From: Schaalia sp. HMT-172
GTDB taxonomy: Bacteria; Actinomycetota; Actinomycetes; Actinomycetales; Actinomycetaceae
Assembly (NCBI RefSeq): GCF_030644365.1
Contig: NZ_CP130058.1
Span: forward strand, 1,922,001-1,986,000
Direction: 5' to 3'
DNA: 64,000 bases
Position 1 is the first letter of the stretch. Every line of letters starts with the position of its first letter. Position numbers and translations under genes: made by a program. Below the pieces are notes generated by a model. The model ran no database searches, was not told the DNA's origin, and saw nothing but the letters and a program-made list of their open reading frames with translations. Shown piece by piece: positions 35,551 to 39,357 of this stretch.

Positions 35551-36750
35551 GTGTCCTCGTCCTCCGTTCTCGTCATTAACTCCGGTTCCTCCTCCATCAA
35601 GTACCAGCTCGTCGACCCCGAGACCGGCGACGCCATCGCCAAGGGCCTCGTCGAGCGCATCGGCGACCCAATGGGCCTCATCAAGCACGTGTACGGCGAC
35701 GCCGTCACCGAGGAAGAGCTGCCGGTTCCCGACCACACCGTCGGCATGCGCGAAGTGCTGCGCCTCTTCGACACCGAGGGCCCGTCCCTGGCAGAAGCCG
35801 GCATCCTCGCCGTCGGCCACCGCGTCGTTCAGGGCGGCCGTTACTTCGACGGCCCAGCCCTCATCACCGACGAGGTCCGTAACCTCATCGAAGAGCTGTG
35901 CCCGCTGGCTCCCCTGCACAACCCCGCCCACCTCAAGGGCATCGACGTGGCGCGCGAGCTCATGCCCGACGTCCCCCACGTCGCCGTCTTCGACACCGCG
36001 TTCTTCCAGCAGCTGCCCGCCCGCTCGGCCCTGTACGCCCTGGAGACTGAGACCGCCGAGAAGTACTCGGTTCGTCGCTACGGCGCCCACGGCACCTCCC
36101 ACCAGTTCGTCTCCCAGGAGATCGCGAAGCTGGAAGGCCGCGACGACCTCAAGCAGATCGTCATGCACCTGGGAAACGGCGCGTCCGTGTCCGCCGTCAA
36201 GAACGGCAAGCCGATCGACACGTCCATGGGCCTGACCCCCCTCGAGGGCCTCATGATGGGCACCCGCACCGGCGACATCGATCCCGCCGTCGTGTTCCAC
36301 CTGCAGCGCGTGGCCGGCATGAGCGTCGACGAGGTCGACACCCTTTTCAACAAGAAGTCCGGCATGAAGGGCATGACGGGCGAGTCCGACATGCGCTCCG
36401 TGTGGGACATGATCCACAACGATGACGACCCCGAGGCCCAGCAGCGCGCCCGTACCGCCATGGACGTCTACATCAACCGCCTGCTGAAGTACGTGGGTTC
36501 CTACACCGCGGAGCTGGGTGGCCTGGACGTCATCACCTTCACCGCCGGCATCGGCGAAAACGACGCAGCAGTGCGCCGCGAGCTGGCCGAGGCCCTCGCT
36601 CCCTTCGGCGTCAAGATCGACGTGGAGGCGAACCAGGTTCGCTCCGGCGAGCCGCGCGTCGTCTCCACGCCCGACTCGGCCGTGACAATCTACGTCTTCC
36701 CGACCAACGAGGAGCTGGCGATCGCCCGCCAGGCGCTGACCTTCGCCTGA
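35551..36750 (+). CDS. ackA: Acetate kinase
   Basis: 399 residues from a GTG at 35551 with AAAGG upstream; the open frame reaches back to 35485 but covers the hairpin. Typical AckA: VLVINSGSSSIKYQL, GHRVVQGG, VFDTAFFQ, RRYGAHGTSHQFV, HLGNGASVSAV, GLMMGTRTGDIDP and FTAGIGEND. Converts acetyl phosphate plus ADP to acetate plus ATP. Its last 20 bp and the following terminator are duplicated at 37964-38030, flanking the DUF3800 island. Confidence 0.97.
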   Translation: MSSSSVLVINSGSSSIKYQLVDPETGDAIAKGLVERIGDPMGLIKHVYGDAVTEEELPVPDHTVGMREVLRLFDTEGPSLAEAGILAVGHRVVQGGRYFDGPALITDEVRNLIEELCPLAPLHNPAHLKGIDVARELMPDVPHVAVFDTAFFQQLPARSALYALETETAEKYSVRRYGAHGTSHQFVSQEIAKLEGRDDLKQIVMHLGNGASVSAVKNGKPIDTSMGLTPLEGLMMGTRTGDIDPAVVFHLQRVAGMSVDEVDTLFNKKSGMKGMTGESDMRSVWDMIHNDDDPEAQQRARTAMDVYINRLLKYVGSYTAELGGLDVITFTAGIGENDAAVRRELAEALAPFGVKIDVEANQVRSGEPRVVSTPDSAVTIYVFPTNEELAIARQALTFA

Positions 36751-36797
36751 TTCTGTCGTACCAACGAGGCCGGGGTTCCCACGTGGGGCCCCGGCCT
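36731..36797. repeat. 67-bp direct repeat, left copy (ackA end plus terminator)
   Basis: Covers the last 20 bases of ackA and its terminator. Matches 37964-38030 at 66 of 67 positions, the difference being A versus G in CCC(A/G)CGTG. The two copies bracket 1166 bp containing the DUF3800 gene. Confidence 0.95.
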
Positions 36798-36799
36798 CG
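36765..36799 (+). terminator. ackA terminator
   Basis: Stem CGAGGCCGGGG (from 36765) with CCCCGGCCTCG (ending 36799), 14 nt after the stop. The arm is the recurrent GAGGCCGGGG word. Confidence 0.8.
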
Positions 36800-36818
36800 G
36801 GCGTATCCGTCGCGCGTA

Positions 36819-36848
36819 TTGACTTCACCCCCACACACCGACTACGAT
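36819..36848 (+). promoter_or_regulatory. Promoter of the DUF3800 island
   Basis: TTGACT (36819-36824), 18-nt spacer, TACGAT (36843-36848). It would start a transcript near 36855, about 100 nt before the DUF3800 start. Confidence 0.6.
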
Positions 36849-36860
36849 CAAGAGTGGTAA

Positions 36861-36930
36861 CGGCGAGCAAGTCCTCGCAGAGTGCCAATCCGCGGGCCCA
36901 CGAGCGCACACGTTGCGCCGTGGGTCTTTG
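36861..36930 (+). ncRNA. Candidate structured RNA upstream of the DUF3800 gene
   Basis: In the ~100-nt leader, a 5-bp hairpin GCGAG/CTCGC (36863-36878) is followed by a bulged hairpin: outer GCCCACG/CGTGGGT (36896-36902 with 36919-36925, one G-U) and inner GCGCA/TGCGC (36904-36908 with 36914-36918), then TTTGCG. Conserved RNA motifs named DUF3800 RNAs have been described next to genes of this family. I infer kinship from position and structure only and have not matched a specific motif. Confidence 0.5.
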
Positions 36931-36951
36931 CGTCTCTCAGTGAGGAGGAAC

Positions 36952-37902
36952 ATGCTCATCGCTTATATCGACGAAGTTGGCGAAGCTGGCGCTTTCATTT
37001 CAAAGGATCACAAGAGGTTTAAAATATCCCCTGCATTCGGCTATGCCGGCTTTGTTGTTCCTGAACAGCATGTCCATGCTTTATCTCGAGATGTCGCGAT
37101 AACCAAGCAGAAGTTCTACTCACTTCTCTGCAGCGACGGCGAGGAAAATCCCAGAAACTACGCTCCTACATGGGAGCGTAAAGGGTCTGACCTCCTGAGC
37201 AAACACGCAATGGGGAGAGCAGGACGACAGGAAGTAATTGAGCTGCGCTCGCTTCTCACACGAATATCGAGTAATTACGGTGGAAAGCTCTTCTACTTCG
37301 TCCGCGAAAAACCGATCGGTTCCCCCGGACAGGTATGGGGAAAGGATATTGACAACAACTGGGAAAATAAACGCGAGGAGAGAACCCTTGAATGTTTGAG
37401 CGAGGCGATCAACCGACTCTGCACTTATGCTGAACACGAAGAACAGAACATCCTTCTTTTTCAGGACATGATCAACGAAAATGAGCGCTATCAGCAGGTT
37501 CGACGCAGTTACGCTCATGTCTACAGCCGCATCAGAGAACATCAGGAGATGCGTCGTATCCTAGAAGCGCCTGCATACATCGACTCAGAGCTTTCCACGA
37601 ATATCCAGTGCGCAGACTGGATCGCAGCTCTCATCGGCCGGGCGTGCGACTACCAGCTGATTCCCGGCAGCTCGTACAAGTGGGTGGCTGAGACATTTTA
37701 CCGCTATCTTCATGGTCATTTCACGTACGAGTCAACACTCCAGTTTAATATGCGCAGCATCGACAACATTCACAATATCAAGATTCTTGATAGAGCCAGA
37801 CCAGCTCTCGACTCCATCGCTGGCATGTCTCCCGAGAATCTCCGGCTTCTTCAGAAGGTACATGCTCGCACGAGTGCCCCTACTCCTCGTAAACCGTCGT
37901 AA
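36952..37902 (+). CDS. DUF3800 domain protein on a small inserted island
   Basis: 316 residues from the ATG at 36952 with GAGGAGG; upstream in-frame codons overlap the structured leader. Starts LIAYIDEVGEAG with acidic residues D7 and E8, then GYAGFVVPEQHV, and later YIDSELSTNIQCADWIAALIGRACDY, matching the DUF3800 plan of an N-terminal YxDESG strand and a distal QxADxxA helix; an RNase H-like fold with nuclease activity has been suggested for the family. GC is clearly lower than pta-ackA and codon use differs. Bounded by 67-bp direct repeats, with no recombinase inside. Function unknown. Confidence 0.85.
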   Translation: MLIAYIDEVGEAGAFISKDHKRFKISPAFGYAGFVVPEQHVHALSRDVAITKQKFYSLLCSDGEENPRNYAPTWERKGSDLLSKHAMGRAGRQEVIELRSLLTRISSNYGGKLFYFVREKPIGSPGQVWGKDIDNNWENKREERTLECLSEAINRLCTYAEHEEQNILLFQDMINENERYQQVRRSYAHVYSRIREHQEMRRILEAPAYIDSELSTNIQCADWIAALIGRACDYQLIPGSSYKWVAETFYRYLHGHFTYESTLQFNMRSIDNIHNIKILDRARPALDSIAGMSPENLRLLQKVHARTSAPTPRKPS

Positions 37903-37963
37903 CTGACACTGTCTGACACTTTCACTGGCCGATAGGCAGTAACACTGGACCACGCCTACAACG

Positions 37964-38030
37964 AGGCGCTGACCTTCGCCTGATTCTGTCGTACCAACGA
38001 GGCCGGGGTTCCCGCGTGGGGCCCCGGCCT
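37964..38030. repeat. 67-bp direct repeat, right copy (duplicated ackA end plus terminator)
   Basis: Copies the ackA codons AGGCGCTGACCTTCGCCTGA and the terminator, but no ackA reading frame leads into it. It still folds as a terminator (arms 37999-38008 and 38021-38030) and now ends the DUF3800 transcript. Confidence 0.95.
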
Positions 38031-38186
38031 TTCGGTGTTAGAGGCAGACAGCGTTGGGGGCGTAGCGTTGCGTCACTGTGCTGGCTGGGGAGAATTGGTC
38101 GTGAAGGCGGTTATGGCCCAGGTGCGGGGCGTCAGGCTCAGGTGCGGGGCATTGCTCCGCGCCCCTGCTTGTCAGATGCTGCTTGT

Positions 38187-38284
38187 GGATAGGAACGGCG
38201 CATCTGGATAGGAAACGACATATCCGGATAGGTTAATAACCTATCCGGATGCCCATAACCTATCCGGATGCACGCAACCTATCC
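38187..38284. repeat. Inverted array of 19-bp repeats, left of the sirtuin gene
   Basis: GGATAGG starts at 38187, 38206 and 38226; its complement CCTATCC starts at 38240, 38259 and 38278. Spacing is 19-20 bp within each arm with 7 bp at the centre. The right-arm unit reads CCTATCCGGATG plus seven variable bases. The whole can fold into a long hairpin. It matches the array at 39233-39329 in number, spacing and orientation. The rest of 38031-38404 holds no gene. Confidence 0.9.
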
Positions 38285-38404
38285 GGGTGTCGGGAGTACC
38301 CCTCATGCCGGGAGAGGCTCCCAGCAACATGACTCGTCCTGTGAGCCAGGGGCGCGCGGGCGCCGGGCGTATCCTGGGATGGTAGCGCGAGCGAGGAGGC
38401 CCTC

Positions 38405-39160
38405 ATGAACGACGACGTATCGACACTGGCGGAGTGGATCACATCTTCCCCGTCCACCGTGTTTTTCGGCGGTGCGGGCGTGTCCACTGAGTCGGGAATC
38501 CCCGATTTTCGCGGGGCGAACGGCTTCTACTTCCAGGAGCGCGAAATTCCTCTGGAGACGGTGCTGAGCATCGATTTCTTTGAGCGGCATCCGCAGGCCT
38601 ACTGGGAGTGGTTTCACGAGATCTACCGTCCCGTCGACCCCAATGGGGCGCACAGGGCCCTGGCCGCCCTGGAGGCAGCCGGTCGGCTGGACGCGGTCGT
38701 TACACAGAACATCGACGGCCTGCATCAGCGGGCTGGGTCGCGGACCGTGTGGGAGCTGCACGGCAACTGGGAGCGCCTCGTATGCACGCGCTGTGGGACC
38801 GTCGCGGCGCTCGGGGATGCCACCTGGGTCGACGGGGATCCCGTGCCCGCGTGCCCGTCGTGCGGAGGGCAGATGCGCCCGGACATCGTCATGTACGGCG
38901 AGTCCCTGGACGAGGGTGTCATCGAGGCCGCCGTGTCTGCCATCGCGCGGGCGTCCACGCTGATCGTGGCCGGCACGTCCCTCGTGGTCTACCCGGCGGC
39001 GGGCCTCATCAACTACTTCTCGGGGGACCACCTGGTGCTCATGAACGCCACCCCGACCTCGGCCGACGCGCACGCCGACCTGATCGTCCGCGCCCCGGTC
39101 GCCCGCACATTCGACCAGGTTATGGCCGAGTTGCGCGAGGAGGGCGTCGTGTCTGCGTAG
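38405..39160 (+). CDS. Sir2-family NAD-dependent protein deacylase (sirtuin)
   Basis: 251 residues. FFGGAGVSTESGIPDFRG (NAD loop), TQNIDGLHQRAG, the catalytic His119 in ELHG, a zinc site C127xxC130 and C150xxC153, VAGTSLVVYPAAGL and LMNATPTSAD. It removes acyl groups from lysines using NAD. The stand-alone catalytic domain of normal length argues for metabolic deacylation; no defence partner gene is adjacent. It sits in a neighbourhood of NAD genes and is bracketed by two matching repeat arrays. Confidence 0.93.
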   Translation: MNDDVSTLAEWITSSPSTVFFGGAGVSTESGIPDFRGANGFYFQEREIPLETVLSIDFFERHPQAYWEWFHEIYRPVDPNGAHRALAALEAAGRLDAVVTQNIDGLHQRAGSRTVWELHGNWERLVCTRCGTVAALGDATWVDGDPVPACPSCGGQMRPDIVMYGESLDEGVIEAAVSAIARASTLIVAGTSLVVYPAAGLINYFSGDHLVLMNATPTSADAHADLIVRAPVARTFDQVMAELREEGVVSA

Positions 39161-39232
39161 GGCTTGCGGCGCACGGGATTCACTCACATGCCACGGCCCC
39201 AACGCACAGGCGCCTCTCCCCTGCACACATGC

Positions 39233-39329
39233 GGATAGGTTGTGCGCATATGGATAGGTTATCCGCATGCGGATAGGTTATTTTCCTATCCGGATGTTCG
39301 TAACCTATCCGGATGTTCGTAACCTATCC
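39233..39329. repeat. Inverted array of 19-bp repeats, right of the sirtuin gene
   Basis: GGATAGG starts at 39233, 39252 and 39271; CCTATCC at 39285, 39304 and 39323. Exact 19-bp spacing within each arm. The right-arm unit is CCTATCCGGATGTTCGTAA. Outer GCATGCGG/CCGCATGC words add to the symmetry. It lies between the sirtuin stop and the end of the convergent NAD-kinase-like gene, so it may also stop transcription from both sides. Confidence 0.9.
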
Positions 39330-39357
39330 AGATAATGCCGCATGCGAACCCGCAGGA

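What the first reader, a model, noticed from the sequence alone, without database searches (positions are those of the whole stretch)
36731..38030. DUF3800 island inserted at the 3' end of ackA between 67-bp direct repeats
The last 20 bp of ackA plus its terminator occur twice (36731-36797 and 37964-38030, 66 of 67 identical), bracketing 1166 bp that hold one promoter, a structured leader and one AT-richer DUF3800 gene. The insertion leaves ackA intact, and the displaced copy of its terminator serves the cargo. This is the footprint of site-specific integration or capture at a gene end, but there is no recombinase inside, so the unit looks non-autonomous and minimal.
Basis: partly seen in the sequence, partly recalled or inferred. 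Interest (0 to 1): 0.85.

Follow-up and report, generated by a model that had tools for sequence, protein, structure and literature searches.

The report
RNA-plus-DUF3800 unit at gene ends
Next to a housekeeping gene sits a tiny, apparently mobile unit made of one structured RNA and one nuclease-like gene; related units sit at the ends of other genes and transfer-RNA genes in many bacteria, in some cases between two copies of the gene end, and no integrase gene was seen inside.

Summary
In detail: 66/67-bp direct repeats bracket a promoter-like site, an RNA leader and an intact 316-aa DUF3800 gene. In two relatives the repeat is 98-99 bp; seven congeners have one copy at ackA, an empty site. 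The surprise is generality. Related units sit between direct repeats (19-282 bp) at 12 different sites (ackA, tRNA-Met, tRNA-Arg, protein-gene 3' ends and others): 10 of 79 loci against 0 of 439 shifted control windows. tRNA genes are 13-fold enriched beside units, 11 of 11 with the 3' end facing. Similar units in unrelated contexts share DNA only from the promoter to about the stop codon. Rathayibacter gives an exact empty site. Leaders of 27 other loci and the window form one covarying RNA without an Rfam match. No integrase lies in the window's unit; its genome has only two tyrosine recombinases (Xer-like by inference). I conclude it is a compact RNA-plus-DUF3800 mobile unit inserting at gene 3' ends. 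I infer, unproven, that DUF3800 with its RNA drives movement, as endonuclease mORFs do in fungal mitochondria. Against: 69 of 79 loci lack such repeats, and leader-target pairing was not significant. Rivals: an integrase in trans; passive recombination of cargo.

The parts
35551..36750 (+). ackA, the host gene whose 3' end is duplicated; intact
   Evidence: Pfam PF00871 484.8 bits
36731..36797 (+). direct repeat copy 1: last 20 bp of ackA plus hairpin; the equivalent repeat in relatives would span about 36711-36808
36819..36848 (+). promoter-like site TTGACT-18-TACGAT; the left end of the unit lies just before it
   Evidence: not above shuffles by itself; left edges of similar units elsewhere lie near the -35 region (by eye)
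36856..36930 (+). structured leader RNA: GGTAAC...GAGTGCC stem with inner hairpin, then GC hairpin
   Evidence: 13 of 19 consensus pairs with compensatory changes; no Rfam match at the gathering score, only one chance match at E 5.8
36952..37902 (+). DUF3800 gene, 316 aa, intact; start set by homology (the mechanical ORF begins at TTG 36913)
   Evidence: dN/dS 0.13 against G001
37964..38030 (+). direct repeat copy 2: displaced ackA 3' end and hairpin
38405..39160 (+). sir2-family gene, the downstream neighbour of ackA in single-copy genomes

Best explanation
The segment is a compact single-gene mobile unit (promoter, structured RNA, DUF3800 gene; about 1.0-1.2 kb) that has inserted at the 3' end of ackA. 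Units of this family insert at 3' ends of tRNA and protein genes; the host gene keeps a working 3' end, and in some cases the original 3' end is left beyond the unit as a second repeat. Shown: repeats, single-copy sites in relatives, related units at many unrelated sites, sharp unit ends in several pairs, ackA-site DUF3800s forming one clade. Inferred: that the DUF3800 protein (RNase H fold according to the literature), probably with its leader RNA, cuts or recombines the gene end and so moves its own gene, as endonuclease mORFs do in fungal mitochondria. Also inferred: repeats allow exact loss by homologous recombination, and gene conversion between copies keeps them alike.
For: Repeats flank 10 of 79 loci against 0 of 439 control window pairs and 5 of 30 against 0 of 91 (sets overlap; G001 was tested with a hand-set window because an IS splits it); 12 distinct sites in all. 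In the clear cases the repeat holds a gene 3' end with its stop codon or a tRNA 3' half. Exact empty site: Rathayibacter G939 against G937 and G935, 28-bp duplication, flanks collinear at 94 and 92% over about 900 bp. tRNA-Arg: one copy in G192, G193, G194, G195, two in G196. Similar units in unrelated contexts: L171/L174 90.1% over 973 bp from -142 to the stop, L116/L117 82%, L108/L110 77%. tRNA enrichment 13-fold, p 6e-7, 11 of 11 facing by the 3' end. ackA-site DUF3800s are one clade, 100/99. Between the window's repeats no recombinase; G000, G196, G124, G574 have only two PF00589 matches each, G196 no PF00239 match. Anatomy matches gene-end-duplicating mORFs (PMC3630166 passages).
Against: 69 of 79 loci show no repeat of score 18 or more. 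G019, G007, G931 and L128 have a unit at the same gene end with no second copy found. Of 11 tRNA-side units only L107, L133 and L159 (13 bp) show a second tRNA piece in the locus; L136 is cut off. No movement, excision or cleavage was observed. Leader-target pairing was not significant (p 0.08 complementary, 0.67 identical, 13 units). Clade-site agreement is confounded by descent within one genus, and several tRNA-side units are scattered over the tree. No collinear empty site was found for G574, and G063/G073 shows no clean junction. No structure could be predicted; no PDB relative was found by sequence.
Confidence: 0.5

Rival explanations
1. A trans-acting site-specific integrase (of a phage or ICE, past or present) inserts the unit; the repeats are attL and attR and the unit is a non-autonomous, CIME-like passenger.
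For: Targets (tRNA 3' halves, gene 3' ends, either orientation) and repeat anatomy are those of integrase att sites (att habits recalled). 11 of 22 unit-bearing genomes have three to seven PF00589 matches. G004 has DUF3800 beside a tyrosine integrase.
Against: The other 11 of 22 have only two PF00589 matches (Xer-like by inference), and G196 has no PF00239 match; 3 of 79 loci have a tyrosine recombinase-like ORF within the fetched flanks, none of them repeat-flanked (three usable seeds, so sensitivity is limited). The same minimal unit at 12 sites is not expected of random passengers.
Confidence: 0.25
2. The unit is ordinary cargo (for example a defence or RNA-antitoxin toxin gene) spread by homologous and illegitimate recombination anchored in conserved gene ends; duplications are by-products.
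For: In G019 the unit replaces the ackA-sir2 spacer of its near twin G016, with no second repeat; same gene end with different right flanks in Curtobacterium and Rathayibacter; no common right-end motif by eye.
Against: Homology ends sharply at unit edges in several pairs; exact target duplication with collinear flanks; tRNA enrichment. PADLOC has no match at E up to 1.
Confidence: 0.2
3. Vertical inheritance plus a local tandem duplication of the ackA end, or an assembly error.
For: G001 and G020 repeats have nearly the same edges; nadE joins G000 and G001 (98/100) and the sir2 tree does not separate the occupied genomes.
Against: Single-contig genome; same footprint in independent assemblies and at unrelated genes; the ackA tree groups occupied G020 with single-copy G022 and G026 (100/100).
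Confidence: 0.03

Closest known systems
mORF elements of fungal mitochondria (endonuclease ORF with duplicated C-terminal end; Glomus, Allomyces; PMC3630166, passages seen)
   Same: Gene keeps a 3' end brought with the element, endonuclease ORF follows, displaced native 3' end lies beyond it.
   Different: Those enzymes are LAGLIDADG or GIY-YIG, not DUF3800; no such leader RNA in the passages seen; bacterial units also use tRNA ends; cleavage untested here.
CIMEs and IMEs (PMC5704250, passages seen)
   Different: In the window no integrase, no transfer gene and no remains of a larger element between the repeats; one constant 1-kb unit at many sites.
IS110 with bridge RNA (PMC11208160, PMC11208158; search listing and start of abstract only)
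   Same: One protein plus a non-coding RNA in a compact element (RNA 5' of the gene in IS110: recalled).
   Different: Only DUF3800 is found by Pfam; long repeats of variable length; no RNA-target pairing shown.
DUF3800-associated RNA motifs of Rfam (RF02968, RF02969; names seen; the 2017 motif paper is recalled, not held)
   Same: Structured RNA just upstream of DUF3800 genes.
   Different: No Rfam family reaches its gathering score on this leader (permissive search of the window leader).

Membership tests
DUF3800 proteins (PF12686) | profile match above the curated cut-off | tested here: met
   51.5 bits, cut-off 21
DUF3800 proteins (PF12686) | RNase H nuclease fold | not testable with these tools
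   structure prediction switched off; fold stated in PMC10910872 and PMC12669027 (passages)
Rfam DUF3800 RNA motifs | covariance-model match | tested here: not met
   11 loci; window leader, E up to 10; 20 loci
Integrase-type genomic island (IME, CIME) | direct repeats holding the target-gene end | tested here: met
Integrase-type genomic island (IME, CIME) | integrase in the element, or remains of a larger element | tested here: not met
   window: only DUF3800 between the repeats; 3 of 79 loci with a tyrosine recombinase-like ORF in the flanks (limited seeds)
mORF-type gene-end homing element | duplicated gene 3' end around the ORF | tested here: met
mORF-type gene-end homing element | LAGLIDADG or GIY-YIG endonuclease | tested here: not met
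   Pfam shows DUF3800 only
mORF-type gene-end homing element | protein cleaves the empty allele | not testable with these tools
   needs biochemistry
IS110 | IS110 transposase domains | tested here: not met
   no such Pfam match
IS110 | guide RNA loops pair with the target | tested here: inconclusive
   permutation p 0.08
Classical IS or transposon | terminal inverted repeats and fixed-length target duplication | tested here: not met
   repeat length varies 19-282 bp; the only listed inverted pair at the window unit's edges is the self-complementary hairpin of the two repeat copies (I7; 25 of 36 pairs listed)
Known anti-phage defence system | PADLOC model match | tested here: not met
Type III toxin-antitoxin | tandem RNA repeats processed by the protein | not tested
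   no tandem repeat was noticed in the leader, but no dedicated test was run

The most novel reading that the evidence does not exclude
A previously undescribed class of minimal bacterial mobile element, made of one structured RNA and one DUF3800 RNase H-like protein, that uses the RNA-protein complex to recognise and cut or recombine gene and tRNA 3' ends and to insert its own 1-kb unit there, duplicating the gene end so that the host gene is unharmed.
Probability: 0.33. Interest if true: 0.9.

Novelty: new variant of a known kind. Interest (0 to 1): 0.72.

Why it matters
DUF3800 genes occur across Actinomycetota and Pseudomonadota here and have been linked to structured RNAs (PMC10910872 passage), but what they do is open. 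Evidence that RNA plus DUF3800 forms a self-contained unit that moves between gene ends turns a protein of unknown function into a testable candidate for an RNA-linked integration enzyme, and gives a bacterial parallel to gene-end homing in mitochondria.

Tried and rejected
Rfam at permissive threshold gave one chance match. Leader-to-target pairing not significant: dropped as evidence. Structure prediction off, so no fold comparison; PDB sequence search gave two unrelated weak hits. Class-level search added little (3 of 394 genomes). Serine recombinases exist in G000, 0.9-1.0 Mb away. Integron cassettes set aside: units carry their own promoter-like site and homology between units ends near the stop codon (by eye; attC was not searched for). 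Parts read G001, G007 and G004 loci unoriented or outside the ackA region, so only its G020, G019 and G018 results are used. The dN/dS value for G020 is impossible for 81% identical proteins (the stop-containing row was misaligned) and is not used. In one search two of five integrase seeds were wrong reading frames. In some searches and 59 genes with an early stop had their end set by hand (start + 900 or match end + 30), and G001 had a hand-set upstream window. The tRNA statistic uses the 79 genome-contig loci; other loci were scanned in part.

Full report
Observation. The repeats, ackA end, promoter-like site, leader and DUF3800 gene are as stated. GC of the gene is 50.2% against 66.4% for the window. 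The window lies in a single-contig 2.53-Mb genome, G000:C1:1922001-1986000.

The locus in the genus. DUF3800 matches in 9 of 35 genus genomes, ackA DNA in 32 of 35; the 31 other ackA regions were fetched and annotated with the window's. Both repeats and unit: G000, G001, G020. Unit after ackA without a second repeat found: G019, G007. Remnants: G008, with two DUF3800 pieces, one inverted. One repeat copy and sir2 directly after ackA: G005, G006, G013, G018, G022, G023, G026; G018 has a related unit downstream of nadK. The remaining ackA regions lack a match to this repeat. The repeat is 98 bp in G020 and 99 bp in G001 with nearly the same edges. Copies in G000 share a spacer seen in no other compared genome, those of G001 likewise with one difference; the G020 spacer is nearly that of single-copy G022. 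This fits recent duplication or gene conversion. The ackA tree groups G020 with single-copy G022 and G026 (100/100); the sir2 tree is unresolved; nadE joins G000 and G001. Three of the six copies at this site are broken: G001 by an IS with an 8-bp duplication, G020 by an internal stop, G008 by decay. G000 is intact, dN/dS 0.13 against G001. In G019 against its near twin G016 the unit replaces the ackA-sir2 spacer.

Generality. Matches occur in 36 of 213 family genomes, and with profiles in 18 of 396 order genomes and 3 of 394 class genomes, some of them weak fragments; so the family is patchy. A scan of named genomes found 98 relatives, of which the best 80, 79 distinct loci, were kept. A fixed test for a direct repeat (one copy 40-520 bp before the gene, one from 30 bp before to 320 bp after its stop, score 18 or more) was met by 10 of 79 loci and by 0 of 439 window pairs shifted along the same loci, highest control 15. 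A set of 30 loci from genus, family, order and class genomes, overlapping the first, gave 5 of 30 against 0 of 91. Together 12 distinct sites: ackA; tRNA-Met (L107); tRNA-Arg (G196); gene ends in Curtobacterium (L124), Rathayibacter (L132, L135), G416 and G063; L133; L140; L141; L161; L163. In the clear cases the repeat holds the last codons and stop of the host gene, or the tRNA 3' half, in L107 on to a terminator-like hairpin. In L107, L124 and G416 the second copy supplies the stop codon of DUF3800. Exceptions: L141 and L133 have the intact gene on the right; L140 looks like the 5' part of a gene (recalled, not searched); L161 and L163 are unassigned. Cases near threshold (L133, G416) could be chance singly.

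Empty sites elsewhere. In Rathayibacter 15 of 15 genomes have the host gene end. G937 and G935 have one copy and run on collinearly (94 and 92% over about 900 bp) into the sequence after copy 2 in G939: a 28-bp exact duplication with about 1.2 kb inserted. G574 has a 65-bp repeat at the same place, but its right flank matches none of the others. G931 has a unit with no second copy seen, G930 a 98-bp remnant; the other 11 show no unit in the 1.5 kb fetched. For tRNA-Arg, G196 has two identical 46-bp copies; G192, G193, G194 and G195 one each by exact match in about 3 kb; G190, G191, G197 and G198 have the tRNA but not that exact string. G063 against G073: no unit in G073; homology resumes 187 bp after copy 2 in G063 and about 709 bp after the gene end in G073, so no clean junction.

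Unit edges and mobility. Pairs of similar units without flank homology share DNA from about -75 to -155 before the start to near the stop codon: L171/L174 Pseudomonas 90.1% over 973 bp from -142 to the stop exactly; L116/L117 Mycobacterium 82%, -155 to 14 bp before the stop; L108/L110; L157/L168; others end 4-158 bp before it (21 pairs chosen from the longer, cut list). Some pairs keep flank homology on one side (L162/L163, L124/L128, L132/L135) or 165 bp past the stop (G110/G204). By eye the left edge lies near the -35 box. tRNA genes: 11 within 350 bp of the 79 units (54 kb), all with the 3' end facing, against 6 in 387 kb further out, p 6e-7. Insertion beside 3' ends may be partly selected because it spares promoters. 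Of these 11 only L107, L133 and L159 (13 bp) show a second tRNA piece in the locus, and L136 is cut off.

Leader RNA. Of 48 loci checked, 34 had the start motif and 14 did not; 27 of the 34 plus the window were aligned, seven being left out (Corynebacterium-type or shifted starts). 19 predicted pairs, 13 with compensatory change. No Rfam family reached its gathering score on leaders, and a permissive search of the window leader gave one chance match.

Who moves it? Phage_integrase in 22 genomes: 11 have exactly two matches, taken to be XerC and XerD (inference), among them G000, G196, G124 and G574; 11 have three to seven. Resolvase in 8 genomes: G000 three, 0.9-1.0 Mb away; G196, G101 and G001 none; G020, G063, G124 and G574 one to three. 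Only 3 of 79 loci had a tyrosine recombinase-like ORF in the flanks, with limited seeds. The ackA-site DUF3800s form one clade (100/99), and three of four members of another clade (G196, L107, L122) sit at tRNA genes, but L110, L118, L131, L133, L139 and L158, also beside tRNAs, are scattered. So site choice seems to travel with the unit at least at ackA, with shared ancestry as a confounder. A passage gives DUF3800 an RNase H fold and a link to ncRNAs (PMC10910872). Hence my reading that DUF3800, perhaps with its RNA, is the mobility factor. It is inference: no activity was shown, and leader-target pairing was not significant.

Literature. Of 11 papers holding 'DUF3800' (10 listed) I saw passages of three and only listings of the rest; two searches added none that describes DUF3800 units as mobile or their gene-end repeats, as far as listings show. 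Preprints and most subscription papers are not held, and the 2017 RNA-motif paper could not be read. The mORF parallel rests on passages of PMC3630166, the CIME definition on passages of PMC5704250.

Noticed in passing
window 38222-38290 and 39227-39335: Clustered GGATAGGTT/AACCTATCC repeats flank the sir2 gene as inverted copies (69 nt, 84% complementary); similar letters occur near the G018 DUF3800.
   Followed up: no
window 38031-38352: About 320 bp of extra sequence between repeat copy 2 and the sir2 leader, absent in G020 and G001, where GGGCGTATCC runs straight on to sir2.
   Followed up: partly
G000:C1 1186828, 1078332, 1187507, 1077062, 458164: The ackA terminator hairpin stem recurs at five other places in the genome (31-42 bp) and in several congeners.
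   Followed up: no
L057 in G001, between the leader and DUF3800: An IS-like insert with GGGTTATAGGACA ends and an 8-bp target duplication TCATCGCT sits at about codon 4 of DUF3800.
   Followed up: partly
L050 1964-2585 (G008): Two DUF3800 remnants facing each other: one of the ackA type, one inverted and like the nadK-site unit of G018.
   Followed up: partly
L108, L110, L118, L119, L131, L148: Corynebacterium-type leaders carry a different conserved stretch (CCGGGCA.CAACTCC); perhaps a second RNA class.
   Followed up: no
L171 1291-1487 and 3954-4030: Pseudomonas unit in a locus with C4 antisense RNA and a tRNA-Met, perhaps a P4-like satellite (link recalled).
   Followed up: no
L067 5970-8677 (G004): DUF3800 of A. 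culturomici lies beside a tyrosine integrase.
   Followed up: partly
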